Positions 8,788 through 58,702 of a stretch of 64,000 nt of DNA are shown in pieces. Position 1 is the stretch's first letter. Every line of letters starts with the position of its first letter. The stretch is from Candidatus Lindowbacteria bacterium RIFCSPLOWO2_12_FULL_62_27. Lineage in GTDB: Bacteria; Lindowbacteria; 2-12-FULL-62-27. The notes below the pieces were generated by a model that saw only the letters and a list, made by a program, of their open reading frames with translations, did not search any database and was not told where the DNA came from. Where the stretch lies: assembly GCA_001784175.1 (NCBI GenBank), contig MFPR01000041.1, positions 1 through 64,000 of the forward strand, read 5' to 3'. The position numbers were made by a program, and so were the translations under genes.

Positions 8788-8815
8788 TTGCGCGACCCCC
8801 AAATCCTGCTATGAT
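8788..8815 (+). promoter_or_regulatory. Promoter of the cupin gene
   Basis: TTGCGC (8788-8793), 16-nt spacer, TATGAT (8810-8815). The ATG at 8824 begins only 8 nt after the -10 box, so the transcript should be leaderless or have one to three leader bases. It is divergent from the promoter at 8727-8754. Confidence 0.6.
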
Positions 8816-8823
8816 GCGCGCCT

Positions 8824-9285
8824 ATGACGATGATTGAGGGCGTTGAGATCAAGGACCTGGTGACGCACAGCGATGAGCGCGGGTTTTTTCGGGAGATGAT
8901 CCGCGTGACGGACGGGTTTTTTTCCGAAGGGTTCGGGCAGGCCAGCCACACGATGACGCACGTGGGGGCGGCCAAGGCATGGCATTATCACAAAAAGCAG
9001 ATCGACTGGTGGTATGTGGTGAGCGGCGTGATCAAGGCGGTCCTGCACGATCTTCGGACGCAGTCGCGCACCCATCGCGTCACCCAGGAAGTTTTCATGG
9101 GCGACGGATATCCGGCTCGCGTGATCAGGATTCCGACGATGGTCGCGCACGGATACAAGGTCCTCGCGGGGCCCATGCACCTCGTGTACGTCACGTCCGG
9201 CGTCTACGATCCCGCCGATGAACTCCGCCTGCCGCACGACGATCCGTCGATTGGATACGATTGGAAAGCTTCGGTCATCAAATAG
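8824..9285 (+). CDS. RmlC-like cupin (dTDP-4-dehydrorhamnose 3,5-epimerase-like)
   Basis: 153 residues with the fold signature of the RmlC branch of cupins: DERGFFREM near the N-terminus, AWHYHKKQIDWWYVVSG in the centre, then VIRIPTMVAHGYKVL and VYDPADELRLPHDD. RmlC epimerises dTDP-4-keto-6-deoxyglucose on the way to dTDP-rhamnose. Here the protein is shorter than classical RmlC (about 180) and the other rml genes are not adjacent, so a related sugar-nucleotide epimerase or isomerase is equally possible. Its position next to glycan ligase genes fits a surface polysaccharide role. The start follows a -10 box by 8 nt. Confidence 0.7.
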   Translation: MTMIEGVEIKDLVTHSDERGFFREMIRVTDGFFSEGFGQASHTMTHVGAAKAWHYHKKQIDWWYVVSGVIKAVLHDLRTQSRTHRVTQEVFMGDGYPARVIRIPTMVAHGYKVLAGPMHLVYVTSGVYDPADELRLPHDDPSIGYDWKASVIK

Positions 9286-10453
9286 GCGGGGGCCGGGTAT
9301 CCTGAACAGAAGAATTTTTGCGATCTGGTTCGCGCTGGCGGCTCTCTCGGCGTACGCCGGCGCCGAGCCTCGCCGGACGGACACGTCTGTCCGCCAGGCC
9401 GTGTCAGTTGTGCTGGTCGTCGATCCGCGTCTGCCAAGCGCGCCCAAGGCGGTGGTGTCGGAGGCGCTTCAGACGGCGTCGAAGTGGATCGAGACCTGGT
9501 ATCGGAAAAGGGTGCGGTTCCGGATCGACCGGACCGAATCGGTCGATTCCTATCTGGCGGAGCCGCTGCGAAAGCTTCCGGTCCTCAACGAGTGGCGCCG
9601 GTTTTCTTATTCGCTCGACGGGACGGACACGGTGATGCGGTTCCTCTCACAGCAGTCGGACGTCCTGCGCGCCCTGCCGATCGACGCGCTGCGATCCTAC
9701 GTGCCGGCTTCAATCCGAAGCCGGATCACGACGCCCGAACAGGCCGCGCTGAACCTTCTGCTGATCTATGATGAAAAATACAGGCTCTGGAAAAGCCTCC
9801 GGACGCCCGCCGGGATGCCTTTTTTCGATACAGCCCTGCCGATGAAGCACAGCTACTGGCACTGGGAGCGGGTCTTTGAAACGGTGTGGCCGGACAGCGT
9901 GACGGACCACCTGATCGTGACGAACGTGATGCTGCTGGACGACGCCCTTTCGGACGCGCCACCCCACAGTCTGTTGCGCGGGGGACTCCTCAACGGATTT
10001 TCGGAGGAGGAATGCCCGCAGGCGATCGTGTCGACGTTTCCGATCTTCACGGATTTCCCGGCGATCTCGGATTTGAGGGATTCCGGGGAATTCACGAAAA
10101 AGGACCGGCTCCTCGCGCTGTCCCACATCATCGCGCACGAGTTCGGCGCGCATGTCGTCGAGGGCCTCCGCGACGTCTACGACCACGAGGCGTGCCTTGC
10201 GGTGCCGACATCGGGCCTCGCCTATCAGACGACGATCCGGCGCCTCTTTCAGGGCAAACCGTGCCGCCGTGGCCACCCGAAGATCAACCGCGCCGTCAAC
10301 CTGGCCAACCGCTACGAGAACCTCGCGCGGCGGTACTTGGAAATCAAAGAATACGGCAAGGCCAAGGCCGCCGTCGAACGCGCCATCGCGATCGACCCAA
10401 AGCGCCCGTTGGTGAAACTCATGCTGAGGCAGATCGAGAAGAAGTTGAAGTAG
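9218..10453 (+). CDS. Secreted protein of unknown function with His-rich motif and TPR-like tail
   Basis: The longest frame is 411 codons. A hydrophobic signal segment (RRIFAIWFALAALSAYAGA) lies around residues 31-49, so export is likely. The real start is unclear: ATG 9218 overlaps the previous gene by 68 nt, TTG 9251 is in frame, and the signal segment itself begins near 9302 with no ATG. Residues near 310-330 read HIIAHEFGAHVVEGLRDVYDH, a cluster of His, Glu and Asp that resembles a metalloprotease zinc site but does not match HExxH exactly. The last 45 residues look like one TPR unit (YLEIKEYGKAKAAVERAIAI). I do not recognise the family. Confidence 0.65.
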   Translation: MNSACRTTIRRLDTIGKLRSSNRRGPGILNRRIFAIWFALAALSAYAGAEPRRTDTSVRQAVSVVLVVDPRLPSAPKAVVSEALQTASKWIETWYRKRVRFRIDRTESVDSYLAEPLRKLPVLNEWRRFSYSLDGTDTVMRFLSQQSDVLRALPIDALRSYVPASIRSRITTPEQAALNLLLIYDEKYRLWKSLRTPAGMPFFDTALPMKHSYWHWERVFETVWPDSVTDHLIVTNVMLLDDALSDAPPHSLLRGGLLNGFSEEECPQAIVSTFPIFTDFPAISDLRDSGEFTKKDRLLALSHIIAHEFGAHVVEGLRDVYDHEACLAVPTSGLAYQTTIRRLFQGKPCRRGHPKINRAVNLANRYENLARRYLEIKEYGKAKAAVERAIAIDPKRPLVKLMLRQIEKKLK

Positions 10454-10456
10454 TCG

Positions 10457-11560
10457 TTATTTTTTACCCAAGATGCCGTTCCAGCGGTCCAGATTCTCCT
10501 TTTGATCCTTGAATAATCGTTCCGTCGAGCCTTCGATCGTGACTTTCTGTATCCGGTCGCCTTGGGTGATTTTGTCGACCACGTCCTGGCCCTGGACGAC
10601 GCGGCCGAACACAGAGTGCTTGCCGTCGAGCCAGGGGGTGGCCTTGTGGGTGATGAAGAACTGGCTGCCGTTGGTGCGGGGGCCGGCGTTGGCCATGGAG
10701 AGAATCCCGCGGGTGTTGTGTTTGAGCCTCGGGTGGAATTCGTCCTGAAACTGATAGCCCGGCCCGCCCGCGCCCGTGCCGGTCGGATCGCCGCCCTGGA
10801 CCATGAAGTCCTTGATGACCCGGTGGAATGTGAGCCCGTTGTAGTATCCGCGGAGCGCGAGGTTCGTGAAATTCGTCACCGTGACCGGCGCCTCGTTCGG
10901 ATAGAGCTCCACCGTAATGTCGCCCTGCGTCGTGGACAGCACGGCGATCAAGCCTTCGTAGGGCACGGGACTGGTTTCGGACGAAGCGTCGTTCATAACC
11001 ATGGCTGTATCAATCACGATAGTTTCTTTCGGAAGCTTTTTGAACTCCCCCCCCTTATTTTCCGTCGGGCTCTCCGAAATCTGCGTGACGACATCCCAGC
11101 CCTCCACGACCCGCCCGAAGGCCGAATAACAGGCGGGATGGCCGCCCTGCCAGTTGTCGAGGTAGGCGTTGTCCGCCACGTTGATGAGGAACTGCGCGGT
11201 CGCGCCGCCGGATGATCCGGCGCAGGCCGTCGCGACCGTGCCGGCCGTGTTCTTGAGCGCCTTGCCGGTGTCGGCCGGAAGGTCCAGCCCGGCCGGTTTG
11301 ATCTTGAGGTCGCGGGTGAATCCGCCGGCCTGGATGAGGGCGCCCTTGATCACGCGGTGGAACACGGTGCCGTCGTAGTGCCCGCGCCGGACGAAATCGA
11401 GAAAATTCTTCACGGCCACCGGCATCCGGCCTTCGTCCAACTCCAACAGGATTTCGCCTTTCGACGTGACAAGCTTGACCTGCGGCGTCTCGGCGCCCGC
11501 GGTAGCCGTCAAGATCGTGATGCACAGCCATCCCATCGCAAACAGGTGTGACAGCTTCAT
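10457..11560 (-). CDS. Exported peptidyl-prolyl isomerase with two cyclophilin domains
   Basis: About 367 residues: a signal peptide ([18 protein letters not shown]) followed by two cyclophilin-type PPIase domains. The second (about 205-345) is canonical: [37 protein letters not shown]. The first (about 28-190) keeps [15 protein letters not shown] and [10 protein letters not shown] but is more diverged, of the PpiA/PpiB type seen in proteobacteria. The protein should catalyse proline isomerisation in the periplasm. ATG 11560 is chosen because a TATATT box lies 7 nt upstream; TTG 11566 is an alternative. It converges with the secreted-protein gene, only 3 nt away, so any terminator must lie within coding sequence. 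Confidence 0.88.
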
Positions 11561-11567
11561 GCCCAAA

Positions 11568-11596
11568 AATATATCACACCTTCTTCTTGACAGGAA
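11568..11596 (-). promoter_or_regulatory. Possible promoter of the cyclophilin gene
   Basis: TATATT at 11568-11573, 17-nt spacer and a weak -35 (TTCCTG, 11591-11596) on the minus strand. The -10 box ends 7 nt before the ATG, the same close spacing seen at other unit-leading genes here. The -35 is poor, so this rests mainly on the -10 box. Confidence 0.4.
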
Positions 11597-11622
11597 ACCC
11601 GCCGGCTGGGGAAAATTACCGT

Positions 11623-12291
11623 ATGGCTATTTCATCGACCTTTCTCTTTTCCCTTTCCGGCCTCCAGACCGCCGTGGACCGGCAGGCGGTGACGGCTCAC
11701 AATGTCGCGAACGTGCAGACGGCTGGATTCAAGGCGCATCGCGCGACCCAGGCGGACCTGCGGACGGGCGGGACAAGGATCAACGCGATCGATACGCTTG
11801 CGGCACAGGGGCCGATCCTCCGGACGGGCGGCGTGATGGATCTGGCGGTCGCCGGGGACGGGTTTTTTCAGGTGCGAACCGCGGCCGGCGCCGTTCAGTT
11901 GACGCGCGACGGCAGTTTCAGGCTCGACGGGCAGGGCCGGCTTGCCGACGCTCAGGGGAATCTGCTTGAGCCGCCGATGACCGTGCCCGCCGGGGCGCAG
12001 GCGTTGCAGGTGATGTCGGACGGCCGCGTCGGCGCCGTGATGCCGGACGGGTCGGTCGAGGCGATCGGGCAGATCCAACTCGCGAGGGCGGCCGTCGGCG
12101 CGCCCGCCGTGGGCGCGCCGGGGCAGGCGGGATTCGGCGCCCTGATCCCGGGCGCGCTGGAGGGATCCAATGTTGATCTCGTGAATGAAATGGTCAACCA
12201 GATCGTGGATCACCGCGCATTCGAAGCCAATCTCAAGCCCATCCAAACCGCCGACGAGATGCTCGGCACCGTACTCGATCTCAGGCAATAG
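11623..12291 (+). CDS. Flagellar basal-body rod/hook protein of the FlgF/FlgG family
   Basis: 222 residues from ATG 11623; an upstream ATG at 11548 would overlap the divergent gene and add a non-homologous leader. The N-terminus [18 protein letters not shown] followed by [16 protein letters not shown] is the conserved rod/hook N-terminal helix. VAGDGFFQV and [15 protein letters not shown] are the FlgF/FlgG core, and the C-terminus [18 protein letters not shown] is the paired coiled-coil helix. It builds the periplasmic rod of a flagellum. It is shorter than typical FlgF or FlgG (about 250-260), and no other flagellar gene lies nearby, so the exact subunit cannot be assigned. Confidence 0.85.
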
Positions 12292-12304
12292 GCTGGCGAA
12301 ACGT

Positions 12305-12360
12305 AACTATTCACCTCCTCTCCCCCCGGAGGGGGGAGAGGATTGAGGTGAGGGGGGTGG
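12305..12360. repeat. Half copy of composite palindromic dispersed repeat
   Basis: Begins AACTATTCACCTCCTC, contains a perfect CCCCCC/GGGGGG palindrome and ends GAGGTGAGGGGGGTGG. It matches the left half of fuller copies at 44471-44607 and 56277-56398 and the reverse-oriented copy at 40117-40241. It lies between two genes and contributes the start region of the TMTC-like gene. Confidence 0.85.
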
Positions 12361-14054
12361 CCGGCCGCTCTTCGGTCCTGCTCTGTCTTCTCCTTTTTCT
12401 GATTTCGGCGATCGCGTTCTGGGATGTGTCCCGCTGCGATTTCATCAACTATGACGATTACGATTACGTTATTCAGGTGCCGGAAATCCGAAACGGCCTG
12501 TCGTGGGCCGGCCTCACGTGGTCCTTTAAAACCGGCCTGACCGATTTCAGCCGGAATTTCATGTGGACGCCCGCCGTCTCCGTATCCCATCAGGTCCTGT
12601 TTCATTTCTTCGGGCTGGATCCGCAGCCGCACCATCTGGTCAATGTCGCGATACACGCGCTCAACGCGATCCTCCTGTTTCTCGCGCTCGTGCGCCTGAC
12701 CGGCGCATCCGGTCCAAGCGCCGTTGTCGCCGCCGTGTGGGCGGTCCATCCGCTGCGCGTCGAGTCGGTGGCGTGGGTGGTGGAGCGCAAGGATGTCCTG
12801 AGCGCGTTTTTCTGGAACCTCACGATTCTCGCGTACGCGCGGTATGCCGCGTCGCCCGGCGTCCAGCGGTATCTGATCACGGCGCTGGCGTTTTTCCTGT
12901 GCCTGCTCACAAAACCGGCGGTGGCGCCGTTGCCGCTCGTGCTGTGGCTTCTGGACTTCTGGCCTCTGAACAGGATTCGTTTCCGACCGTTCGACGCGGC
13001 GGCGTGGCGGAAAACATTCATGGAAAAACTGCCGATGCTCGGACTTTCCGTGGGACTCGCGCTCTGGACCGCGTCGCATCTTTCAAAGGAAATCGACAGC
13101 CGCGCCGTCCCCTTCGCGCTTCAAGCGTCGAACGCCGTGATCTCGTATGTTTCGTACATCGGAAAACTCTTTTGGCCGACCGCGCTGGCGGTTTTTTATC
13201 CCTTCCCGGAAACGACGTATCCGGCGTGGCAGATTTTGTCGACGGGGGCTGTTCTTATCGCCATCACCGTGATCTGCCTCAGGTACTCGGGCCGGTTTCC
13301 GTATCTCGCGGTCGGCTGGTTCTGGTACCTCCTCAGCCTTCTTCCGATGATCGGACTCGTCCGGTTCGCGATGGCCGACCGGTATACGTATATTTCCCAC
13401 GTTGGCCTGCTGATGGCCCTGGCGTGGGGTGCCGCCGAACTGTTGTCTCGAAGCCCCCGTATCTGCTGGATCGCGGCGGTCGTGACGGTCGGCTTGCTCC
13501 TCGCGCTGACCCGCGCACAGGTGCGGCACTGGGAAAACAGCGTCACCCTCTTTGAGCAGGCCCTCCGGGTCACGGACCGCAATTTTCTCGCGCATCAGAA
13601 CCTTGGTTCGGCCCTCGCCGAACGCGGCCGGACGGACGAGGCGATCGTTCAGTATCAGGCGTCGCTCCGTATCCGGTCCGACAACGCCGACGTCTACAAC
13701 AATCTCGGAAACGCGCTGGCCCGGACCGGAAAATTGCAGGAAGCGGTCGACCAATACAGCCAGGCGCTGCGGTATCCGACGCGGCATCTGGCGACGGTGT
13801 ACCGGAATCTCGGAACCGCCCTGTACCAACTGGGCCGGCCGGCCGACGCCATGAGGAATCTGGAAGCGGCGCTGAACCTGGAACCGCGCGACGCGCTCAC
13901 CCATTACCTCCTGGGAAACGCGCTGGCCGAACAGGGGAGACTGCGGGACGCGGCGCGCCATTTTTCCGAAGCGGTGCGCCTCAATCCGAACGACGCCGCG
14001 GCCCGGCGGAACTTGGAGCGGGCGCAGGCGATTTTGTCAGAAAAAACTCAGTAA
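12348..14054 (+). CDS. Polytopic membrane protein with C-terminal TPR repeats (TMTC-like)
   Basis: 568 residues. INYDDYDYV followed by GLSWAGLTW, then HHLVNVAIHALNAILLF and HPLRVESVAWVVERKDVLSAFFW, are the hallmarks of a bacterial membrane family resembling the eukaryotic TMTC O-mannosyltransferases, with about ten membrane segments in residues 8-385. Residues 395-565 hold four or five TPRs (AHQNLGSALAERGRTDEAI, VYNNLGNALARTGKLQEA). A glycosyltransferase role is inferred from family resemblance only. The start is GTG 12348, inside a dispersed repeat; a start a few codons downstream is possible. The 3' end overlaps ispH, on the other strand, by 18 nt. Confidence 0.85.
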   Translation: MRGVAGRSSVLLCLLLFLISAIAFWDVSRCDFINYDDYDYVIQVPEIRNGLSWAGLTWSFKTGLTDFSRNFMWTPAVSVSHQVLFHFFGLDPQPHHLVNVAIHALNAILLFLALVRLTGASGPSAVVAAVWAVHPLRVESVAWVVERKDVLSAFFWNLTILAYARYAASPGVQRYLITALAFFLCLLTKPAVAPLPLVLWLLDFWPLNRIRFRPFDAAAWRKTFMEKLPMLGLSVGLALWTASHLSKEIDSRAVPFALQASNAVISYVSYIGKLFWPTALAVFYPFPETTYPAWQILSTGAVLIAITVICLRYSGRFPYLAVGWFWYLLSLLPMIGLVRFAMADRYTYISHVGLLMALAWGAAELLSRSPRICWIAAVVTVGLLLALTRAQVRHWENSVTLFEQALRVTDRNFLAHQNLGSALAERGRTDEAIVQYQASLRIRSDNADVYNNLGNALARTGKLQEAVDQYSQALRYPTRHLATVYRNLGTALYQLGRPADAMRNLEAALNLEPRDALTHYLLGNALAEQGRLRDAARHFSEAVRLNPNDAAARRNLERAQAILSEKTQ

Positions 14055-15158
14055 CTTCTGAATGACTTCCTCCAATTCGGAGTGCGGGGTCGACGCGCCT
14101 GCGGTCAGGCCGACCGACACGGGCGGGGCGGGCAGCCAGTTTCGCTGTGTGACCGGCCGGGGCTGGTCGGTGGGCAGATAGGTGATGGCGTTGCGGTCGA
14201 AACAATCCGCGCGTTCGATGTGATACACGGGGACGCCGCAGGTCTTGTGCGCGGTGATGGCCAGATTGCGGGTATTGGAGCTGGCATGGCCTCCGACGTC
14301 GATGAAGAGGTCCATGCGTTCCTGCCGGGCCAGCCGCCCGACGGCGTCTTGGCGGTCCTGGGTGGCGGAACAGATGGTTTTCATGGCGTGGAAGTTTCGC
14401 GTGTCCCCGTCGCGGGCTGAAATGGCCTCGCGGAACATCTCGAAAATTTCGAGCGACTCGTTCATGAGCATGGTGGTCTGGTTGGCCATGCCGATCCGGC
14501 GCAGATGAAGGTCGGGGTCGAATCCGGGTGAGTGGGCCCGCGCGAAGGTGTGGAGGATCGACTCGCGTGATTCCTGCCCGCGGAGGAACCGGCAGACCTG
14601 CGCCGCCTCGACGGTGTCGCGGATGATCAGGTAGTGATCGGCGAAGGAACTCGTTGCGATTGATTCCTGATGCTCGACCTTTCCGTGGATCACCGCGGTA
14701 AAGCCGCTTCGGCTGAACTCGGTTACCTCCTCCTCGACGGTCCGCACTTCCGGGCAGGTCGTGTCGACCGAGACGAAGTGCCGGTCGCGGATTTTCTGGA
14801 AAATGTCCTTGCGCGTGCCGAAGGCGGGCACGACCACGACGGCGTCCGGCTCGATCCGGTCGATCTCGTCGGGATCCAGAAACACGGCGCCGCGCTTCTG
14901 AAGCTCCGTGTTGACATGCGGGTTGTGGATGAGGTCGCCGAGGACATAGATTTTTTTGTCCGAGTATTTCTGCAGGGTGTCGTAGACGGCTTCGATCGCG
15001 TAGAGCACGCCGTAACAGAACCCCCAGACGCCGGCCAGCCGCATCGTGAGGCCGTTTTTCTCGATAAGGTGAAACCCCATCCGCACGCCGTTCTCCTCCG
15101 TCCAGTCCCGCCGGGTGGCCTTCTTCAGGATGTCTTTCCGGAGCAGTTCCTGTTTCAT
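14037..15158 (-). CDS. ispH: 4-hydroxy-3-methylbut-2-enyl diphosphate reductase, plant/cyanobacterial type
   Basis: 373 residues. It catalyses the last step of the MEP pathway, reducing HMBPP to IPP and DMAPP with a 4Fe-4S cluster. The three cluster cysteines are visible in GFCYGV, DTTCPEV and TICSATQ. HNPHVN, IHGKVEHQESIATSSFA, GIANQTTML and TAGASTP are further family signatures. The long N-terminus and the HGKxxHxE form (instead of the HPEV form of E. coli) match the plant and cyanobacterial branch. It is the last gene of a four-gene unit, 9 nt after the HemQ-like gene. An electron donor gene is not adjacent. Confidence 0.95.
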   Translation of the reverse strand: MKQELLRKDILKKATRRDWTEENGVRMGFHLIEKNGLTMRLAGVWGFCYGVLYAIEAVYDTLQKYSDKKIYVLGDLIHNPHVNTELQKRGAVFLDPDEIDRIEPDAVVVVPAFGTRKDIFQKIRDRHFVSVDTTCPEVRTVEEEVTEFSRSGFTAVIHGKVEHQESIATSSFADHYLIIRDTVEAAQVCRFLRGQESRESILHTFARAHSPGFDPDLHLRRIGMANQTTMLMNESLEIFEMFREAISARDGDTRNFHAMKTICSATQDRQDAVGRLARQERMDLFIDVGGHASSNTRNLAITAHKTCGVPVYHIERADCFDRNAITYLPTDQPRPVTQRNWLPAPPVSVGLTAGASTPHSELEEVIQKLLSFF

Positions 15159-15167
15159 GGTTCGGAA

Positions 15168-15917
15168 CTAGAGCTCGTCGCAGAGTTCCTTGAAGGATTT
15201 CTTGATGCACGTGAAAATCGGCGTGTCCCGCTCGGTGTACGGCCGGGCCTTGCCGGTGCGCAGCTCCATGACGAGGTCGAGGAAATCGCCGGGCTGGTCG
15301 CTCTCGAAGGCCACGACGAACTCCTGATCGTCCAGGCCGTAGGAATACGTGGTGTTGATCCGGACGGTGGGGTATTTGTGCCCGACCTCGATGTGCTCGT
15401 TCATCATCTGCTGCCGGTCCGCCATCGGGAGCTGATACCAGTCATGGGTTTTGACGAAGGGATAAATGAACAGGTATTTCGCTTCGCCTGGCTCGATGGT
15501 GAGCCGCGTGCCTTCCTGGCCCGGGTGGCGATGCTTGTCGACATACATGGATTTTCTGGTCATGGCCAGATACGCGTAGGCCGAATCGAGGTAGGGGCCG
15601 ATCGAGAGTTTGTTGAGCGCGCCGGACATGGTGTTGAAATCATCCATCTGGGCTGATATCCGCCAGAGCAGAAAGTCGGTGTCAGGCCGCGTGCCGACGG
15701 TCGAATAGGTATAGAGCTTGACGCGGCTCGACCAGGTTTGGAGGTACTCCTGAAATTGCCGGATGGCCGTTTCCCGCGCGCGCGCGTCCAGTTTCCGGAA
15801 ATCGGTCTGGACCTTGTAGAACGCGTAGGAAACGAAATGCCGCATCGCCTTTTCCGGTGCGTCGGTCGCGCCGGCCGCGCGGTCAGGCGCGTTTTCGACA
15901 GAGGCCGGTCGGGTCAT
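15168..15917 (-). CDS. Chlorite dismutase-family protein, HemQ/coproheme decarboxylase-like
   Basis: 249 residues from ATG 15917. FVSYAFYKV near the start, FIYPFVKTHDWYQLP (catalytic Tyr region of ChdC) and YSYGLDDQEFVVAFES place it in the Cld/HemQ superfamily. HemQ converts coproheme to protoheme. The first 24 residues are unlike the family and overlap the upstream gene by 35 nt; ATG 15845 (MRHFVSYAFY) is a credible alternative start. The neighbour is a siroheme decarboxylase, so both belong to heme metabolism although they come from different classical routes. Enzyme versus heme-sensing role is not settled by sequence. Confidence 0.85.
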   Translation of the reverse strand: MTRPASVENAPDRAAGATDAPEKAMRHFVSYAFYKVQTDFRKLDARARETAIRQFQEYLQTWSSRVKLYTYSTVGTRPDTDFLLWRISAQMDDFNTMSGALNKLSIGPYLDSAYAYLAMTRKSMYVDKHRHPGQEGTRLTIEPGEAKYLFIYPFVKTHDWYQLPMADRQQMMNEHIEVGHKYPTVRINTTYSYGLDDQEFVVAFESDQPGDFLDLVMELRTGKARPYTERDTPIFTCIKKSFKELCDEL

Positions 15918-17025
15918 GTTTTTGAAACCAGGCGCGATGGACGCTGGGCACGGGGCAGGGCGGTTTCATGCCGAGCTCGCGTCCGGAAACCAGGACGCGG
16001 GTTGCGCGGATATCAATGCCTGCCTCCCCCGCAGCGGCGTCGATGGCCGTTTTGCGTTCCTTGATCCACTCGAAGGACGGGCCGTGAAGCATGGCGTACA
16101 AACGATATGGAATGTCTTCATAGCGCGTGCGCAGATACGCGTGGGTGACGGCGGCGAATTTGGGAATGAGGGCGCTCAGGCGGTCGACCTGCTCGTCCCG
16201 CACGTCCCACTGGCACATCCCGTTGGCGGAGATGCCGGCGTTGCGGTGGTTGAGGATGACCGAAAACCGCCGCAGGATTTTTTTATTCTGCAAGTCCCGC
16301 ATCCGTATTTCAAAATCGGCAGGGTCCATTCCCGCCGCTCGCGCCCGCAGCGCGTAGGGCTCGTCGGCGCCGCATTCCGGCGATCCTTCGGAGAAGTCGA
16401 CCGGCTCCCAGAGCAATTCGAGACAGCGCTCCTCCGCCTCGCTCAGAATCGATCCCTTTGCATCGGGCTGGACCACCTCGGCGGCTTCGTCCGCCAGATC
16501 CCCCGCTTTTTTTTCGGACGCCGCCGTATGCGCGACCTGGATTTTCAGCATCCGCTCCGCGAACAGGACCCGCACGGCGGCGCCTCCGCAGAGGTCCCGG
16601 AGCCGCTCGGCGGTCGATTCGAGCGACCATTCGGGCGGGACCGCGAGTGTGAACCACACGTTGTAGCCCTTGTCGCCGCGCAGGTAACAGTGGCTGACGC
16701 CCGGGTGGTTCGTGAGGACTTCTGCGGCGCGGTTGACCTGCGCGGAGTCGGCGGCGAGCGCGACGAGCGCGGTGTTGGTTTTCCCGACGAGCTTGCCGGT
16801 TTCAAGAATCCACCGGGAATACCGGACCTGCCCGGCCCTGGTCAAATCCCGTATGCGGTCCCGAACTTCAGCGCCACCCACCGATGTCTTGTATTTTTTT
16901 TGCGCCATGGCCGCGAGTTGGTCCCATGGCTGATGCGAGAACGGCTGGCCGGCCAGCCCGGCCTCGCCGGTTTTGAGGAGGGCGCGATTGATGGGGTCCT
17001 CCATGAGTTTCTGCGCGTCGATCAT
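15883..17025 (-). CDS. Siroheme decarboxylase, AhbA-AhbB (NirD/L-type) fusion
   Basis: About 380 residues from ATG 17025, 14 nt after the upstream stop. Two Lrp/AsnC-like modules lie in tandem. The first has an HTH-like segment followed by a RAM-like domain (SHCYLRGDKGYNVWFTL). The second contains VILNHRNAGISANGMCQWDV, the signature of the Ahb/NirDLGH family. Such proteins decarboxylate siroheme to 12,18-didecarboxysiroheme, an intermediate of the alternative heme pathway and of heme d1. AhbA and AhbB are usually separate genes; fused NirDL forms are known. The frame is open further upstream to 17130, but that part overlaps the aldo/keto reductase and is low complexity. Confidence 0.85.
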   Translation of the reverse strand: MIDAQKLMEDPINRALLKTGEAGLAGQPFSHQPWDQLAAMAQKKYKTSVGGAEVRDRIRDLTRAGQVRYSRWILETGKLVGKTNTALVALAADSAQVNRAAEVLTNHPGVSHCYLRGDKGYNVWFTLAVPPEWSLESTAERLRDLCGGAAVRVLFAERMLKIQVAHTAASEKKAGDLADEAAEVVQPDAKGSILSEAEERCLELLWEPVDFSEGSPECGADEPYALRARAAGMDPADFEIRMRDLQNKKILRRFSVILNHRNAGISANGMCQWDVRDEQVDRLSALIPKFAAVTHAYLRTRYEDIPYRLYAMLHGPSFEWIKERKTAIDAAAGEAGIDIRATRVLVSGRELGMKPPCPVPSVHRAWFQKHDPTGLCRKRA

Positions 17026-17039
17026 GCCGGTGGCGGGGC

Positions 17040-18083
17040 TCAAGAAATTTTTGCGGCCGGCGCCGGCGCCGGCTTTGTCTTGGAATCGGACAGCGGCTGA
17101 ACGAGAGAATCCCTTAGGCCTTCGTCCCACAACCGCCGGATCCGGGCCAGATCCTCCTGCGAGAGGGCCGGGAGGTCGGCGGCGGCGCAGAACTCACGGA
17201 TCTGTTCGGAGGACGTAAAATTCGGCAGAACGGTCTTGACGCTCGGCTGGGCCAGGCAGAACTGGATGGCGGCCTGGGAGAGGCGTCGGCCAGCTTCGAG
17301 AAACTCCAGTATCTGAATCGCCGCGATCCCGGCGGCCATCCATTTTTCCTTGCGGTGGCTCCGGTGATCCGATTTCGAAAAATGTTTTTCGGGCGAGTAG
17401 CTCCGGTCGAGAAGCCCGGAGGCATGGGGCACGCGGACGATCAGGCTCTTGTTCTGCTGTTCGGCGGCCGGAAAAAATCCGGAGGAGGGGTCCTGTTCCA
17501 GGAGGCTGTAAATGATTTGAATGGCGTCGATCCCTTCACGATGGAGCGATTCCATGCCCTCGTCAAACCAGCCGATGTCCGGGCCGAGGGCGACACCGCC
17601 GATCCGGATTTTTCCCTGCGCCTTCAACTGATCCAGCGCCTCCAGAACCTCGTCGCTCCGGAGGGCGTCCATGCGTGGATTATGGAGCTGGTAGATGTCG
17701 ATATAGTCGGCGCCCAGCCGGCGCAGGCTCTCCTCGCAGGCGCGGCGGATGAAGGGCGCGGAAAAATCCTGCGGCAATTCGCTGTGCCCGCCGCGCTCCC
17801 CGGCGTGGGTGTAAATGTCGTAGCCGAACTTTGTGGCGATGACGAGCCGGTCGCGCGGCACGCCGCTTTTCCAGAACGCGTCGGCCAGCATCGTCTCGCC
17901 TAAACCGTTCCCGTAGACGTCGGCGGTGTCATAAAACGTGACGCCCGCGTCCAGGGCTTCCCGCAAAAGCCGGATTCCGGTCTGCGCGTCTTTGACGCCC
18001 CACCAGGTCGTGGCAACCGACCATACGCCAAATCCGATTTCCGAAACGGCCGTGCGACCGTCACTCAAAAATCGATACCGCAT
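17040..18083 (-). CDS. Aldo/keto reductase
   Basis: 347 residues of TIM-barrel aldo/keto reductase. The catalytic tetrad residues are visible as FYDTADVYGNG (Asp, Tyr), IATKFG (Lys) and YIDIYQLHNP (His), and SVKTVLPNFTSSEQ is the NADPH-binding end. It reduces or oxidises a small carbonyl compound; substrate unknown. It is the first gene of the unit leading to the siroheme decarboxylase, HemQ-like protein and IspH. The start is firm: ATG 18083 has a consensus-like promoter with the -10 box 6 nt upstream. Confidence 0.92.
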   Translation of the reverse strand: MRYRFLSDGRTAVSEIGFGVWSVATTWWGVKDAQTGIRLLREALDAGVTFYDTADVYGNGLGETMLADAFWKSGVPRDRLVIATKFGYDIYTHAGERGGHSELPQDFSAPFIRRACEESLRRLGADYIDIYQLHNPRMDALRSDEVLEALDQLKAQGKIRIGGVALGPDIGWFDEGMESLHREGIDAIQIIYSLLEQDPSSGFFPAAEQQNKSLIVRVPHASGLLDRSYSPEKHFSKSDHRSHRKEKWMAAGIAAIQILEFLEAGRRLSQAAIQFCLAQPSVKTVLPNFTSSEQIREFCAAADLPALSQEDLARIRRLWDEGLRDSLVQPLSDSKTKPAPAPAAKIS

Positions 18084-18089: not shown

Positions 18090-18118
18090 AGTGTATCCTT
18101 AACGGAGTCTTGCGGCAA
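18090..18118 (-). promoter_or_regulatory. Promoter of the aldo/keto reductase-heme-ispH unit
   Basis: TTGCCG (18113-18118), 17-nt spacer and TACACT (18090-18095) on the minus strand, then 6 nt to the ATG. It overlaps the 3' end of the Lon-like gene. The predicted transcript is leaderless. Confidence 0.65.
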
Positions 18119-21816: not shown

Positions 21817-21846
21817 ACGGTAACTGGCGGAACGAGGCTTTCGCAA
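21817..21846 (-). promoter_or_regulatory. Promoter of the sigma-like gene unit
   Basis: TTGCGA (21841-21846), 18-nt spacer and TACCGT (21817-21822) on the minus strand; the ATG at 21810 follows after 6 nt. The spacing repeats the close -10-to-start pattern found at other unit-leading genes. Confidence 0.5.
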
Positions 21847-44437: not shown

Positions 44438-44466
44438 ACCCTAGCTTATCCGGGACAAAGGCTCAA
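44438..44466 (-). promoter_or_regulatory. Promoter of the his unit
   Basis: TTGAGC (44461-44466), 17-nt spacer and TAGGGT (44438-44443) on the minus strand, followed after 6 nt by the hisG ATG. A leaderless transcript is predicted, which leaves no space for a classical his leader-peptide attenuator. Confidence 0.6.
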
Positions 44467-50835: not shown

Positions 50836-50841
50836 TAGGGT

Positions 50842-50869
50842 AGTGTACCAAGATAAAAACGAATGTCAA
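50842..50869 (-). promoter_or_regulatory. Promoter of the porin gene
   Basis: Consensus TTGACA (50864-50869), 16-nt spacer and TACACT (50842-50847) on the minus strand. It overlaps the last codon of the aminotransferase gene. Confidence 0.68.
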
Positions 50870-52083: not shown

Positions 52084-52084
52084 A

Positions 52085-53059
52085 TCAAAATCCGGTGAGC
52101 AGAATTCCGGCGAAGGACCCCACGGTGGAGTTGTCCTTGAACTGGTCGACGGCCGAGCCGACTTTCTGGACGACGCGTTTGGTTTCGACGTAGAGCGCGT
52201 CGTCGTTGACGAGCTTGCCGAGCGTTCCCTGGCCCTTGTCGATCTTGGTGACGATGCTTTTGAGACCGGCCGTCGTTTCCTTCAAGCTGGTGCCGAGGTC
52301 GGCCCAGCCCTGGATGGCGTCGCCGATTTTGGTTTCGTTCTGCGCGACGATGGCGTCGAAGCGCTTGGAGGCCGCGTTCATATTTTTGGCGAAGTCCAGC
52401 GCCTGATTGTAGAGCTGGTCGTCCTTGAAGAGTTTCCCGACGGTCCCGCGGCCGGCGGCGGCCTCATCGGAGATTTTTTTCAGGTTGCCGAACGTTCCCT
52501 TCATGGCCGGGCCCATTTCGCCGAAGGTGTTGATGAAATCGGATATTCCATCCTTGTTTTTTTCCATGATGTCGCCGAGGTTGCCGAGGACGCGCTCCTG
52601 GTTCTTGTTGAGGTTGCGCACGAGAACCTGGACGTCGTCGGCGATGAGGTTGGCCTTGTGGACGATCTCGTCGAAATCGGACGTGCCGATGGACCGGATC
52701 TCGCCGCCGGATTTGACAGGCGTCGCGCCCGGGCTGCCAAACTCGATCGAGACGTACCGCCCCCCCATCAGGCTGTCCATGCGGACGGCCGCCCGGGCGT
52801 CCTCCTTGATGGATACGCCGCGCTCGATGCCCATCGCGACCACGACGTCCTGGTCCGCGACCTGAATAGATTTCACCTGGCCGACCTTGACCCCGCCGAC
52901 GGTGACGGGATCGCCGACAGAGAGGCCGTTGACGGCCGGGAACCGGCACAGGACCTCGGATTTTCCGCCGAGCGTGATGTGTTCCGCCTGGAGGGTCAGA
53001 ACGAGGAGGACAACGAGAGCGAGAATGAAAAACAGGCCGACTTTTTGTTCTGCAGTCAT
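52085..53059 (-). CDS. mlaD: MCE/MlaD-type lipid-binding protein
   Basis: 324 residues: one N-terminal membrane helix (VGLFFILALVVLLVLTL), then the MCE domain (VNGLSVGDPVTVGGVKVGQV, DSLMGGRYVSIEFGS), then a long helical C-terminal part (about 120-320). It anchors in the inner membrane and binds phospholipid in the periplasm, with MlaE and MlaF. It is longer than E. coli MlaD (183), as in deltaproteobacterial and other MCE proteins whose helical tails may form a needle. 13 nt after mlaF. Confidence 0.9.
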   Translation of the reverse strand: MTAEQKVGLFFILALVVLLVLTLQAEHITLGGKSEVLCRFPAVNGLSVGDPVTVGGVKVGQVKSIQVADQDVVVAMGIERGVSIKEDARAAVRMDSLMGGRYVSIEFGSPGATPVKSGGEIRSIGTSDFDEIVHKANLIADDVQVLVRNLNKNQERVLGNLGDIMEKNKDGISDFINTFGEMGPAMKGTFGNLKKISDEAAAGRGTVGKLFKDDQLYNQALDFAKNMNAASKRFDAIVAQNETKIGDAIQGWADLGTSLKETTAGLKSIVTKIDKGQGTLGKLVNDDALYVETKRVVQKVGSAVDQFKDNSTVGSFAGILLTGF

Positions 53060-53072
53060 GGCACGACTCCTA

Positions 53073-53813
53073 TCATTTTTTCCCGCGCTGTGTAAAGCGC
53101 CGGACGACCGGATTGTCGCTGCGGCGGCACTCGTCGGGCGTGCCGACGAAATGGAAGCGGCCTTCGTGGAGCATCGCGACGCGGTCGGCGAGCAGGAAGG
53201 CGCTGTCGAGGTCGTGGGTGACGATGAGGGAGGTGACGCCGATGTTACGCTTGAGTTCGAGGATGAGTCCGTCGACGCCCTCGGCGAGGATCGGGTCGAG
53301 GCCGACGGTCGGCTCGTCGTACAGGATGAGCTTCGGCTCGATCGCCAGCACGCGCGCGATCGCGACGCGTTTTTTCATTCCACCGGAAAGTTCGGCCGGC
53401 AGTTTCGACTCGGCGCCGTCAAGCCCGACGAGCGCGAGTTTTTCCTTGCAGCGCCGGACGATCTGGTCTTCCGGCATTTTGTGGCGCTCGCGAAGCGGGA
53501 GGGCGACGTTGTCGAGCGCGCTCAGCGAATTGAGGAGCGCGGATCCCTGGAAGACCATGCCGACATTTTCGCGGAGCACGTTGAGGTCGCGTTCGGCCAT
53601 GGCCGTGACTTCCGCGTCGCCCAGAAAAATCCGCCCGGAGGCCGGCCGCAGAAGGCCGATGAGATTTTTGAGCAGAACGCTCTTGCCGACGCCCGACGGC
53701 CCGATGATCACGAAGATTTCGCCTTCACGGACCTCCATGTCCAGCCCGTTGAGGACGCGCAGTCCGTTGAAATGGACGTGGAGGGCTTCGACGCGGATGA
53801 GGGGGGGCTTCAT
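53073..53813 (-). CDS. mlaF: Phospholipid transport ATPase MlaF
   Basis: 246 residues. Walker A GPSGVGKSVLLK, signature LSGGMKKRVAIARVLA, Walker B LILYDEPTVGLDP and the His switch VTHDL are intact. It powers lipid transfer by MlaE-MlaD. It follows mlaE without an intergenic base. Confidence 0.94.
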   Translation of the reverse strand: MKPPLIRVEALHVHFNGLRVLNGLDMEVREGEIFVIIGPSGVGKSVLLKNLIGLLRPASGRIFLGDAEVTAMAERDLNVLRENVGMVFQGSALLNSLSALDNVALPLRERHKMPEDQIVRRCKEKLALVGLDGAESKLPAELSGGMKKRVAIARVLAIEPKLILYDEPTVGLDPILAEGVDGLILELKRNIGVTSLIVTHDLDSAFLLADRVAMLHEGRFHFVGTPDECRRSDNPVVRRFTQRGKK

Positions 53814-54584
53814 TCAATCAAAGTAGATGAGGAATCGCGTGATGAAATAGTCGCAGATCAGAATCGCGATCAGGGACGCCACCACCGCTCGCGTGGTGGC
53901 GCGGCCGACGCCGTCGGCGCCGCCGGAGGACGAAAGGCCCGCGCGGCAGGAGATCGCGCCGATCAGAAACCCGAACACGGTGCCTTTGACCACGCCGTTG
54001 AAGATTTCCTTGAAATTGACATTGGCGTACAGATTGTCCCAGTACGCGTGATACGAAATGCCGATGTAGGATTTGGCGATCAGCGCGCCGCCGCACATGC
54101 CGACCGCGTCGGCCAAGATCACGAGGAGCGGCAGGGCGATCAGGCACGCGAGAACCCGGGGGACCGCCAGAAACTCGACGGGATTGATGCCGAAGGACCG
54201 CAGGGCGTCGACTTCCTCGGACACGACCATCGTGCCGAGCGCGGTGGCCATCGCGGCGCCGGCGCGGGCGGCGAGGATGATGGCGGTGATGACCGGCCCG
54301 AGTTCCTTGACGATGGACAGGCCGACGAGCGCTCCGACCTTTTCCTCGATGCCGTATTTTTGGAGCTGATAGCCGGACTGGAGCGCGAGGACCATGCCGA
54401 CGAAAAACGAGAGGACCACGGTGATCGGGACGGTTTCGGCGCCGACAAACGAGACCTGGTCGACAAGCTGCCGCGGATGGCGCCGGAGTTTCGGCAGGAG
54501 GGCCACCGACTGGCCTCCGAGTTTGAGAATCTCGCCGGTCTGGCCGAACAACCCGAGCGCGAACCGGCCGGTGGCGGTCAGCAT
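53814..54584 (-). CDS. mlaE: Phospholipid transport permease MlaE
   Basis: 256 residues, five to six membrane helices. VVLSFFVGMVLALQSGYQLQ, GPVITAIILAARAGAAMATALG, SEEVDALRSFGINPVEFLAVPR and FGFLIGAISCRAGLSS are MlaE signatures. It forms the membrane core of the ABC lipid transporter. 19 nt downstream of the WPxY-repeat gene. Confidence 0.94.
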   Translation of the reverse strand: MLTATGRFALGLFGQTGEILKLGGQSVALLPKLRRHPRQLVDQVSFVGAETVPITVVLSFFVGMVLALQSGYQLQKYGIEEKVGALVGLSIVKELGPVITAIILAARAGAAMATALGTMVVSEEVDALRSFGINPVEFLAVPRVLACLIALPLLVILADAVGMCGGALIAKSYIGISYHAYWDNLYANVNFKEIFNGVVKGTVFGFLIGAISCRAGLSSSGGADGVGRATTRAVVASLIAILICDYFITRFLIYFD

Positions 54585-54603
54585 GGGTGCGGGATACGGC
54601 GGC

Positions 54604-56220
54604 TCATCTGGCGGGATGCTGGATGCTGGATAAAACCGTCCCGGAAGACGATTCCTTCGGCAGGGTGCCGCGGTTGAGGATGTGGATGGCCGACAGGACC
54701 GTGTATTTCTGCACGCCGGAGGCGTCGCGGTGGAGCGTGAAGACCGGGCCGATGGTCAGTGCCACTTCCTCACCGTCTTTTCGCCAGTCGACCAGATTCC
54801 ACAAAAGCGACAGCCGGCTTTCCTCGCCCTGGCGCGCGTAATCGACCACGCGCCACAGGGGGCTGTAGACCTCCTGGATCGCCGGAAACTGCGCCTCAAA
54901 GGCCCCGAGAAGATTGGGAAACGAGACGGCCTTGACGCCGGTCAGAGAGTCCTCCTGGAATGAAACGATCGGCCACACGAAAACCTGGCGCTGCCGGTAG
55001 CCGTGGCGGTCCTCGTGGCGGCCGTATACCCAGAGCGGAAAGAACCTGTGATAGAGCCGGCGGCTGTCCGGCCGCGTCGACCGTTCGTACTTGCCCAAGG
55101 TCCAGAGATAGAAAGACGAAATATCCTCCGAGACGGCGCCGGCGGGGCTGACCTGGGTTTTCTTTCGAAAGCCGGCGATCGGCCAGACCTTGAACCCGGT
55201 TTGACTGCCGGTGGTCCGGGAAAAAACCGGCCAGAGGTAATCCCTGGTTTCAAACTGCTCCTTTATATATTTGGTGTTTATATAAAGAGGCCACATTTTG
55301 AACGATCGTTCCAAGTCCGGCGTGACGCGTTTTCCGTAAAATGGAAAGAGGGACTGCGCGTGCCTGCGGCCCTCCAGGATGTCCCAGTACACCGGCAGGC
55401 CCGCGACGATGTCTTTGCCCAAGGCGGTGTCGGCGCTGAGATTCTTCGTGAAATTGAAAACGGGCCACGCCAGAAACCGCGACACATACTGGCCCTCCTT
55501 GACGGTCTGGCCGTAGATGGGCCACAGCTTGACGGTGCGGTATCCGCCGCCGGACCCGACGGTGAAGATGGGCCAGAGGAACTGGTGTTTGACGAACCCG
55601 CCTTTTTCGATCCGCGTGTACAGCGGCCAGAACGCGAAGGACACGCGGTCGTTGCCGAATGCGCCGTAGAGATTGCCGTAGATCGGGAACACGGCCGAAT
55701 AGTCGCGCGTGCTTTTGAACGGGATCGGATAGGACACGTTTCCGGCGGTGCCGGACATATAAATTGGAAACAGCGCCATGTGATGTTGCGGGCCATCCTC
55801 TTTGCGATGATAGACCGGATAAAACGACGTGAACTTGCGCCGCATGCCGTCCTCCGCGGTCCACTCCCGATGGGTCACGATGGGAAAGATGTTGAAGGAC
55901 CGCTCGGTGGGCGTGCGGGTGGCGCGGCCGATCGGCGGGAGGAAATCGACGGTGGTGATCTCGCCATCGGTTTTTTCGGTGACCGACGTGATCAGCGGCC
56001 GGATCGTGCGCCGTTCGCTTTCCGGGCGGAGGGCGCGCGTAAACAGCGGCGCGGCCGCGTGATTGTACTGCCGGCCGCCCGACAGGCTTTCGATGACGCT
56101 GAGCGGCCAGAGATTCGTAATGCGCATGGTCGGCGCCACTTCGGCAAACGCGTAGATCACGCCGCACGCGAGTGAGAACCCCGCCAGGATGTAAACCGCC
56201 AGCCGCGCCCGCAGCTTCAT
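54604..56220 (-). CDS. WPxY/F-repeat envelope protein linked to Mla genes
   Basis: 538 residues. A single N-terminal hydrophobic segment (AVYILAGFSLACGVIYAFA) is followed by about 15 repeats of 25-40 residues, each with an aromatic/Pro core: FYPVYH, LFPIYM, VFPIYG, FWPLYT, LWPIFT, LWPIYG, AWPVFN, LFPFYG, MWPLYI, LWPVFS, VWPIAG, FFPLWV, VWPIVS. Similar repeats occur in uncharacterised proteins of several environmental phyla. The pattern suggests repeated beta hairpins, perhaps an outer-membrane barrel or beta-helix. As the first gene of the mlaE-F-D unit it may be a partner in lipid movement. ATG 56220 is 8 nt after a -10 box. Confidence 0.75.
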   Translation of the reverse strand: MKLRARLAVYILAGFSLACGVIYAFAEVAPTMRITNLWPLSVIESLSGGRQYNHAAAPLFTRALRPESERRTIRPLITSVTEKTDGEITTVDFLPPIGRATRTPTERSFNIFPIVTHREWTAEDGMRRKFTSFYPVYHRKEDGPQHHMALFPIYMSGTAGNVSYPIPFKSTRDYSAVFPIYGNLYGAFGNDRVSFAFWPLYTRIEKGGFVKHQFLWPIFTVGSGGGYRTVKLWPIYGQTVKEGQYVSRFLAWPVFNFTKNLSADTALGKDIVAGLPVYWDILEGRRHAQSLFPFYGKRVTPDLERSFKMWPLYINTKYIKEQFETRDYLWPVFSRTTGSQTGFKVWPIAGFRKKTQVSPAGAVSEDISSFYLWTLGKYERSTRPDSRRLYHRFFPLWVYGRHEDRHGYRQRQVFVWPIVSFQEDSLTGVKAVSFPNLLGAFEAQFPAIQEVYSPLWRVVDYARQGEESRLSLLWNLVDWRKDGEEVALTIGPVFTLHRDASGVQKYTVLSAIHILNRGTLPKESSSGTVLSSIQHPAR

Positions 56221-56228
56221 AGAATCAA

Positions 56229-56257
56229 ATAGTAGCGAATGCGGGGCGGGTCGTCAA
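56229..56257 (-). promoter_or_regulatory. Promoter of the WPxY-Mla-aminotransferase unit
   Basis: TTGACG (56252-56257), 17-nt spacer and TACTAT (56229-56234) on the minus strand, 8 nt before the ATG. Near-consensus, and leaderless by position. Confidence 0.68.
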
Positions 56258-56276
56258 GGATTGGGCGGAAAACATA

Positions 56277-56398
56277 TAACTATTCACCTCCTCTCCCCCC
56301 GCAGGGGGGAGAGGATTGAGGTGAGGGGGGTGGATGGCGGCGACAGGGGACTGCCACCCTCACCCCAACCCTCTCCCGCCACGGGCGGGAGAGGGGGA
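56277..56398. repeat. Composite palindromic dispersed repeat
   Basis: Full copy of about 122 nt: TAACTATTCACCTCCTC, first palindrome, GAGGTGAGGGGGGTGG, a short spacer, CCCTCACCCCAACCC and second palindrome (CTCTCCCGCC-AC-GGGCGGGAGAG). It fills the gap between the AEC transporter gene and the Mla unit. Confidence 0.9.
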
Positions 56399-56417
56399 TA
56401 CAGTTTCGAATAGTTTC

Positions 56418-57314
56418 TCATTCGAGGCGCAACAGGAACGGCAATAGCGGCAGCGATACCGCGGTCGAAATCACGACGGCGGCGGCCGCCTGATCGGGTT
56501 CCGCGCCGTATCGTTCCGCGAGGACATAACTGAAAACGGCGGCCGGAAGCGCGGAGGCGATCAGAACCACCTGGCGGGGCAGGCCGGTGAGAGACAGGAG
56601 GGTGACGGCCGCATATCCGCAGGCGATCCCGCCGGCGAAACGCAGGATCAGGATCAGCGCCAGATTTTTCAGCGAGCGGGGGTCGGTCACGAGCCGCGTC
56701 GGAGTTTCGGCCAGCCGAAGACCGAGCGCCACCAGCGCGAGCGGCGGGGTGGCGGACCCGAGGAAATGGATGGGACGGAGGACGGATTCGGGGACGGACA
56801 CATGGGCGAGTTTCAGAGCGCCGGCGGCCAGGATGGCGCACACGAGGGGCTCGCGAATGACGAGCTTGAATGTTCCCTGGGCCGAGAGGCCGCGTTCGCC
56901 GGCGATCCAGATTCCGAGCGTGAACATGAAGAGCGACTGGACCTGGTCGTAGACCACCACATGGCCGACGGCCTCCGGGCCGAAGGCGAGGTCCATAAGG
57001 GGAATGCCGAGAAAGCCGGAGTTCATGAAGATGACGGGCAGCGCGAACACGCGGACCGGCGCGCCGAACGCGGGCCGCGCGATGAAGCAAAGCGCGGTGA
57101 GGAGCAGGATGACGACCGCCGCGGCCGCGCTCGTGACCGCCATGTCGGCCAGCGAGATGCCTGCGGTCAGGAGCGCGTCGAACACGAGCGCGGGCATGAA
57201 GAGGTCGCAGACGGCCGCCACCCAAAGGTCGGGTTTCCAGTTCCGCCACCGGCCGAAGACGAATCCGGCCAGGATGCAGGCGAAGATCGGCGCGAGGATG
57301 TGCGACAGATTCAT
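56418..57314 (-). CDS. AEC-family transporter (auxin efflux carrier-like)
   Basis: 298 residues with ten predicted membrane segments in two inverted halves. VFMNSGFLGIPLMDLAFG is the conserved AEC motif at the crossover helix. Members move malonate, malate or other organic acids across the inner membrane; substrate unknown here. It is divergent from the citrate synthase operon (about 100 nt between starts), which would fit an organic acid substrate but does not prove it. Confidence 0.85.
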   Translation of the reverse strand: MNLSHILAPIFACILAGFVFGRWRNWKPDLWVAAVCDLFMPALVFDALLTAGISLADMAVTSAAAAVVILLLTALCFIARPAFGAPVRVFALPVIFMNSGFLGIPLMDLAFGPEAVGHVVVYDQVQSLFMFTLGIWIAGERGLSAQGTFKLVIREPLVCAILAAGALKLAHVSVPESVLRPIHFLGSATPPLALVALGLRLAETPTRLVTDPRSLKNLALILILRFAGGIACGYAAVTLLSLTGLPRQVVLIASALPAAVFSYVLAERYGAEPDQAAAAVVISTAVSLPLLPFLLRLE

Positions 57315-57415
57315 GAAGCGGTATGTATCACGGAACGCGGGATTTGACAGCGAAGCCCGGAAATTTTTCCAACCCTTGCGGACGCGCCGGCCGTGTGCTA
57401 GGAAAAAGGAGATCG

Positions 57416-58702
57416 ATGGCGACGCTTCATGAGCGGTTGGCGGAAAACATCCCGGGGCTTCGCAAGGAACTCCAGGGGATCATCAAACAGCACGGAGCGA
57501 GAAAACTTTCGGAGGTCACGGTCGAGCAGGCCTGTGCGGGCCTCCGGAGCGTCCATAGCCTGTTGTGCGACACGTCCGAAGTGGACCCGAACCGCGGCCT
57601 GCTCGTCCGGGGCACGCCGATCTCGGAGCTGACCAATCGCCTTCCCGAAGAAATTTTCTATTTCCTTCTGACTGGCGACATCCCGGACGCCGACGCGCTC
57701 AAGTCTCTTCAGAACGATCTCCGCAAGCGCGCCGACGTGCCGGACCGTGTCTGGACCGTGGTCAACGCGGTGGCCGAGGAGGCGCACCCGATGCGGATGA
57801 CGAGCATCGCGACGCTGAGCCTCGGAACAGAATCGGTGTTCCGGCGGCGATACGATGAGGGGATGAAGAAGGAGGAGTACTGGGAAGCCGCCTTGGAGGA
57901 CGCGCTGACGCTTCTGGCGCGCCTGCCGCAGATTGCGGCGGCCATCTACCGGCGCCGGTACAAGCTGGGCCGGCGCATCCCCTCGGACCCTAAACTGGAC
58001 TGGGCCGCCGACTATGCGCAGATGCTGGGCGTGCCGGACCCGAAAGGCGAGTTCGCCCGGCTCATGCGGCTCTACATGACCCTGCACTGCGACCACGAAG
58101 GCGGCAACGCGAGCGCGTTCACGAGCCATGTGGTTTCCTCGACGCTGTCCGATCCCTACTACGCCGTGAGCGCCGGCTTCAACGCGCTGGCGGGGCCGCT
58201 GCACGGGCTGGCGAACCAGGAATGTCTGGAATTCGTGCTTGGGATTCATAAAAAATTCAAAGGCGCGCCGACGGAGGACGAATACCGGGACTACTGCTGG
58301 GATGTTCTGAACAGCGGCCGCGTGATTCCTGGCTACGGCCATGCCGTCCTGCGCGTGACCGACCCGCGGTTCACGGCGTTTCATCAATTCGGCAAGCTGG
58401 TCTGCCCGAACGACGAGGTGTTCCGGATCGTGGACATGGGCTACAAGGTCATTCCGGAGGTTCTGAAGAAACAGGGCAAGGCGAAGAACACCTGGCCGAA
58501 CGTTGACGCCGGGTCGGGCGCGCTCTTGTATCATTTTGGCGTGACCCAGGCGACGTACTACACGGTATTCTTCGCCGTGTCCCGCGCCCTCGGGCTTCTG
58601 GCGCAGCTCGTGTTGGACCGCGCGATGCTCATCCCGCTGACGCGCCCGAAATCGTTCCCGACCGCGTGGCTCAAGACCTTCATCAATCAATCCGATGTAT
58701 GA
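57416..58702 (+). CDS. gltA: Citrate synthase
   Basis: 428 residues from ATG 57416, with AAGGAG 4 nt upstream; the frame extends upstream to 57323 but lacks homology. The catalytic His and Asp regions are [32 protein letters not shown] and [16 protein letters not shown]. These forms are closer to mitochondrial-type citrate synthases (as reported for Geobacter) than to hexameric GltA of enterobacteria. It makes citrate from acetyl-CoA and oxaloacetate. A possible promoter is TTGCGG (57376-57381), 17 nt, TAGGAA (57399-57404). First of three TCA genes. Confidence 0.93.

What the first reader, a model, noticed from the sequence alone, without database searches (positions are those of the whole stretch)
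8788..57416. Many unit-leading genes appear leaderless: -10 box 6-12 nt before the start codon
Independently at 3694, 8714, 8824, 11560, 18083, 21810, 44431 and 56220, a TANNNT -10 box, in most cases with a -35 at 16-18 nt, ends 6 to 12 nt before ATG or GTG (TATAGT, TATAGT, TATGAT, TATATT, TACACT, TACCGT, TAGGGT, TACTAT). This leaves no room for a Shine-Dalgarno site. The pilin and Uma2 genes, by contrast, have leaders with strong AAAGGAGG-type sites. Two initiation modes seem to coexist, with leadered genes being candidates for high expression or horizontal origin. Leaderless initiation is well known in actinobacteria, Deinococcus and archaea but would be unusual for a Gram-negative of this kind.
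Basis: partly seen in the sequence, partly recalled or inferred. Interest (0 to 1): 0.72.

Follow-up and report, generated by a model that had tools for sequence, protein, structure and literature searches.

The report
Promoters sitting right at start codons
In this bacterium, which belongs to a barely sampled phylum, many genes have their promoter pressed against the start codon, so their messages should begin at the start codon with no ribosome-binding site; this is real across the sampled genome and its two relatives, but the same arrangement is already known from several other bacterial phyla.

Summary
Seven of the eight listed TANNNT boxes lie 6 to 12 nt before a real start codon. The eighth (8714) precedes only a 34-codon ORF and is a copy of the 3694 promoter. 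In an 809-kb sample of the genome, unit-leading genes show a sharp TANNNT peak 6-10 nt before the start. It is absent from a GC-matched alphaproteobacterial control, nearly absent from operon-internal genes, and present in both other held genomes of the phylum. Two thirds of these boxes carry a TTG -35 at 16-18 nt, about 13 times the shuffled expectation. A test that uses no gene calls agrees. In hisG, promoter and start stay together in three genera; in an aldo/keto reductase the promoter persists but both relatives have a leader with a Shine-Dalgarno site. Leaderless expression from sigma70-type promoters at start codons is the best explanation; no TSS data exist. It is a known kind: "TA-led" genes were reported at 13% in Acidobacteria and 16% in deltaproteobacteria, so it is not exceptional for a Gram-negative. 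The idea that leadered genes are horizontal or highly expressed found no support. Novelty lies mainly in the lineage.

The parts
44438..44443 (-). -10 box TAGGGT, 6 nt before ATG44431 of hisG; -35 TTGAGC at 44461-44466 (17-nt spacer)
   Evidence: box and start conserved in G001 (TAGGTT, 7 nt) and G002 (TAAGGT, 7 nt)
56229..56234 (-). -10 box TACTAT, 8 nt before ATG56220; -35 TTGACG at 56252-56257 (17-nt spacer)
8810..8815 (+). -10 box TATGAT, 8 nt before ATG8824 (dTDP-sugar epimerase family); -35 TTGCGC at 8788-8793 (16-nt spacer)
   Evidence: protein start matches the G001 homologue's start
21817..21822 (-). -10 box TACCGT, 6 nt before ATG21810; -35 TTGCGA at 21841-21846 (18-nt spacer)
18090..18095 (-). 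-10 box TACACT, 6 nt before ATG18083 (aldo/keto reductase); -35 TTGCCG at 18113-18118 (17-nt spacer). The upstream same-strand gene ends 15 nt away, so not unit-leading
   Evidence: in G001 and G002 the same gene has the promoter 23 and 68 nt upstream plus an SD site
11568..11573 (-). -10 box TATATT, 7 nt before ATG11560 (cyclophilin-type isomerase); weak -35 TTCCTG at 11591-11596
3707..3712 (-). -10 box TATAGT, 12 nt before ATG3694 (Wzy_C protein); -35 TTGGAA at 3729-3734 (16-nt spacer); predicted leader about 5 nt
8727..8732 (-). -10 box TATAGT, a copy of the 3694 promoter; 12 nt before GTG8714, which opens only a 34-codon ORF overlapping the 5' end of 6226-8694

Best explanation
The boxes are -10 elements of sigma70-type promoters (TTGA, 16-18 nt, often TGnTAnnnT) placed so that RNA polymerase starts at or within a few nucleotides of the start codon. 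The mRNAs are therefore leaderless or nearly so and must be translated without SD pairing, presumably by 70S or IF2/fMet-tRNA-primed ribosomes recognising a 5'-terminal AUG. This mode coexists with SD-led initiation in the same genome and in the other two held genomes of its phylum. Shown here: promoter sequence, position, enrichment, conservation. Inferred: the TSS at +1 and translation of the leaderless message.
For: (a) A start-position peak in unit-leading genes, with starts chosen without any upstream motif: own 26/234 vs 8.1 expected, G002 22/128 vs 3.9, G001 10/52 vs 2.8; near-absent in operon-internal genes. D. radiodurans MP1 (positive control) 8/73 vs 2.4; S. meliloti pSymB (negative control, 62.7% GC) 3/200 vs 5.7. 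(b) 43 of 64 of these boxes have TTG at a 16-18 spacer (27 at exactly 17); shuffles give mean 3.2, max 9; coding TANNNT 65/2343; an extended -10 G is present in 55%. (c) Complete promoters are 5 or more times denser at -18..-11 than elsewhere upstream, and none was found at -30..-18 in the own genome. (d) Gene-caller-free: from 272 promoter-like sites anywhere in 809 kb, 55 ATG matches lie 12-16 nt after the first T (20 expected); G002 41 vs 8; pSymB 4 vs 6. (e) These genes use ATG in 37/42 against 214/372 of other unit-leading genes, P 8e-5, as expected for leaderless starts. (f) hisG conserves box and distance in three genera; the AKR shows exchange between leaderless and SD-led forms.
Against: No TSS or proteomic data exist for this uncultured lineage. 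SD-like tetramers are not significantly rarer upstream of these genes than of other unit-leading genes (5/42 vs 82/372, P 0.16), and the called starts are imperfect. Boxes at -15 and -18 imply leaders of about 3-6 nt, so some messages are short-leadered rather than strictly leaderless. Some genes may also be read from a distal promoter.
Confidence: 0.88

Rival explanations
1. The start codons are wrongly placed: the promoters are ordinary and the true starts lie downstream, behind normal leaders with SD sites.
For: Gene starts in high-GC genomes are often miscalled, and miscalled starts were documented for -10-adjacent genes in Deinococcus (PMC12340547).
Against: The peak is as strong or stronger in genes whose called start is the 5'-most possible one. 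hisG and AKR proteins align with relatives from residue 1. Downstream in-frame starts with an SD are no commoner in this class (7/42) than in SD-led genes (19/82). ATG lies at a fixed distance from promoters in a caller-free test.
Confidence: 0.06
2. The near-start promoter is only a secondary promoter, and the main transcripts start further upstream with leaders.
For: 18083 lies 15 nt behind a same-strand gene and could also be read from it; a few operon-internal genes also carry boxes.
Against: In the own sample genes with a recognisable complete promoter at the start (18) nearly equal all those with one at -120..-18 only (24). A secondary start would still give leaderless mRNA.
Confidence: 0.1
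3. Chance: TANNNT is frequent near genes, and the reader picked examples.
For: Several operon-internal window starts also have nearby TANNNT boxes, without a good -35.
Against: Shuffles, flanking positions, a GC-matched control genome and -35 spacing all reject it, also with the window excluded.
Confidence: 0.01

Closest known systems
TA-led (leaderless) genes of bacteria, Zheng et al. 2011 (PMC3160421)
   Same: TANNNT about 12 bp before the start codon, coexisting with SD-led genes in one genome; reported in Acidobacteria, deltaproteobacteria, Actinobacteria and Deinococcus-Thermus.
   Different: This lineage (three genomes, phylum not named here) does not appear among that survey's groups as far as could be checked. 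The boxes here carry a well-kept -35 near 17 nt in about two thirds of cases.
-10 region adjacent to ORFs in Deinococcus-Thermus (PMC12340547)
   Same: -10 motif a few bp before the ORF driving leaderless mRNA, with experimental support there.
   Different: In the D. radiodurans MP1 sample none of the near-start boxes had a TTG -35 at 16-18 nt, whereas most have one here.
Leaderless transcripts of mycobacteria and other actinobacteria (PMC3898074)
   Same: SD-led and leaderless genes coexist, with TANNNT -10 boxes; bS21 is absent in both (PMC5876184 for M. smegmatis; here).
   Different: Unrelated lineage; no TSS data here.

Membership tests
TA-led leaderless genes (Zheng 2011) | TANNNT located about 12 bp upstream of the start, enriched over background | tested here: met
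   modal first-T position -12
TA-led leaderless genes (Zheng 2011) | Box is a real promoter -10 element | tested here: met
   TTG -35 with 16-18 spacer in 43/64 vs 3.2 in shuffles; extended -10. By sequence only
TA-led leaderless genes (Zheng 2011) | Signal belongs to first genes of transcription units, not operon-internal genes | tested here: met
   26/234 leading vs 7/205 internal in the own sample
TA-led leaderless genes (Zheng 2011) | No SD site upstream | tested here: inconclusive
   5/42 vs 82/372 of other unit-leading genes, P 0.16; none in the listed window genes except a weak AGGA at 18083
Leaderless mRNA | Transcript 5' end at the start codon | not testable with these tools
   needs 5'-end mapping
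Leaderless mRNA | Translated from the 5'-terminal AUG | not testable with these tools
   needs reporter or proteomic data; ATG preference 37/42 is indirect

The most novel reading that the evidence does not exclude
A phylum-level lineage with an intact anti-SD but no bS21 uses complete -35/-10 promoters fused to start codons as a standard alternative to SD leaders, and individual genes move between the two modes by gaining or losing a leader between a fixed promoter and the start codon. Leaderlessness would then be an evolvable setting of each gene, permitted by a ribosome without bS21.
Probability: 0.25. Interest if true: 0.6.

Novelty: new member of a known kind. Interest (0 to 1): 0.42.

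Why it matters
It adds a barely sampled phylum (three held genomes) to those with substantial leaderless expression, with cleaner promoter evidence than a -10 motif alone. It warns that gene callers and SD-based start prediction will misplace starts in such genomes. Orthologues that keep one promoter but differ in having no leader or an SD leader offer a direct way to study how leaders are gained and lost.

Tried and rejected
Leadered = horizontal or highly expressed: no difference in codon score or GC3. bS21 absence as predictor: of seven bS21-lacking families sampled, two (G018, G021) showed the peak, while none of six bS21-bearing families did so clearly (G006 marginal, P 0.04); too few to conclude, and absence is clearly not sufficient. 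Footprinting of 11560, 21810 and 56220 failed: no true orthologue with a usable 5' end in G001/G002. Naming the phylum failed: one named relative is only 'bacterium NC_groundwater_1274_Ag', no paper was found, and 16S probe signatures gave no assignment.

Full report
What was claimed. Eight TANNNT boxes 6-12 nt before start codons were taken as signs of leaderless genes coexisting with SD-led ones.

Check in the window. All eight boxes are present. Seven precede real gene starts; six of these have a gap of 6-8 nt, and 3694 has 12 nt. GTG8714 is not a gene start: it opens a 34-codon frame. The promoter and first codons there are a 78%-identical copy of the stretch at 3694, although the genes behind them, a Wzy_C protein and a spermine-synthase-domain protein, are unrelated. 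18083 has a same-strand gene ending 15 nt upstream, so it is not unit-leading.

Sample and method. The genome is 4.39 Mb in 44 contigs; one 16S gene was found and it ends in an intact CCTCC anti-SD. Its phylum holds only three genomes here, all of one family. I took 40 stretches plus the window (809 kb), and samples of the two relatives (359 and 199 kb). Genes and starts were called from coding hexamers and start-codon type only, never from upstream motifs, so motif position is an independent readout. Controls were D. radiodurans MP1 (positive) and S. meliloti pSymB (negative, 62.7% GC).

Result. In unit-leading genes TANNNT with first T at -16..-12 occurs 26 times in 234 (8.1 expected from flanking positions; shuffles mean 8.8, max 18), with modal position -12. 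The figures are 22/128 (3.9) and 10/52 (2.8) in the relatives, 8/73 (2.4) in Deinococcus and 3/200 (5.7) in S. meliloti. Excluding the window leaves the result intact: 21/214 vs 8.0. Among 64 such boxes pooled over the three genomes, 43 have TTG at 16-18 nt, 27 of them at exactly 17, against 3.2 in shuffles. Complete promoters peak sharply at -18..-11, and in the own sample the zone -30..-18 is empty. A test without gene calls agrees: 55 ATG matches at 12-16 nt after the first T from 272 promoter-like sites, against 20 expected; 41 vs 8 in G002; 4 vs 6 in S. meliloti. These genes start with ATG in 37/42, against 214/372 of the others.

Comparative evidence. hisG keeps a box 6-7 nt before ATG in three genera (TAGGGT, TAGGTT, TAAGGT) while the upstream DNA differs. 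The aldo/keto reductase has the same kind of promoter in all three (TTGCCG-17-TACACT, TTGAAG-18-TAGACT, TTGAAG-17-TACACT). In the window genome it lies 6 nt before ATG; in G001 and G002 it lies 23 and 68 nt before ATG with AAGGAGG or AAAGGAG leaders. The gene thus appears to have changed mode by gain or loss of a leader behind a fixed promoter; direction unknown. Two further orthologue pairs (L010/L093, L008/L096) look leaderless in both genomes by inspection.

Interpretation. Leaderless or near-leaderless mRNAs from sigma70-type promoters are the best explanation. The complete-promoter class is about 8% of unit-leading genes in the own sample and 13% in each relative; strict motif matching and start-call errors make these low estimates. 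The TSS and the translation step are inferred.

What is known. Leaderless TA-led genes were surveyed in 2011, with 13.3% in Acidobacteria and 15.8% in deltaproteobacteria (PMC3160421). GeneMarkS-2 predicts leaderless transcription in 21.6% of bacterial species (quoted in PMC9581028). The finding is a new member of a known kind in a poorly known lineage.

Ribosome. bS21 was not found in any of the three genomes (the search rings in E. coli and five other controls). Its absence was linked to leaderless translation in M. smegmatis by PMC5876184. My small cross-phylum check shows absence is not sufficient and is too small to show association. An S1-domain protein below the rpsA cut-off is present in all three.

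Horizontal origin or high expression of leadered genes: no support.

Noticed in passing
window 3620-3760 and 8640-8780 (minus strand): A promoter plus about the first 20 codons duplicated (78% identical) in front of an unrelated gene; the copy's GTG gives a 34-codon leaderless-looking upstream ORF.
   Followed up: partly
G000, G001, G002 whole genomes: Ribosomal protein bS21 (PF01165) not found in any genome of the phylum, although the 16S anti-SD of G000 is intact.
   Followed up: partly
L010 1447-1833 minus strand, and L093 16899-17291 minus strand: Orthologous leaderless-type promoters share a conserved palindrome TACACAACATTGTAGTGTA overlapping the spacer and -10: a likely repressor operator.
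   Followed up: no
window 11560-11623: Divergent gene pair 62 nt apart; the + strand gene at 11623 has TTGACA with an 18-nt spacer to GAAAAT ending about 6 nt before ATG, so it may also be leaderless with a weak -10.
   Followed up: no
G018 and G021 (unnamed, GC 64-68%, bS21 not found): TANNNT peak at -13..-11 before unit-leading starts, but without TTG -35 boxes at 16-18 nt: a leaderless signal of a different promoter type.
   Followed up: no
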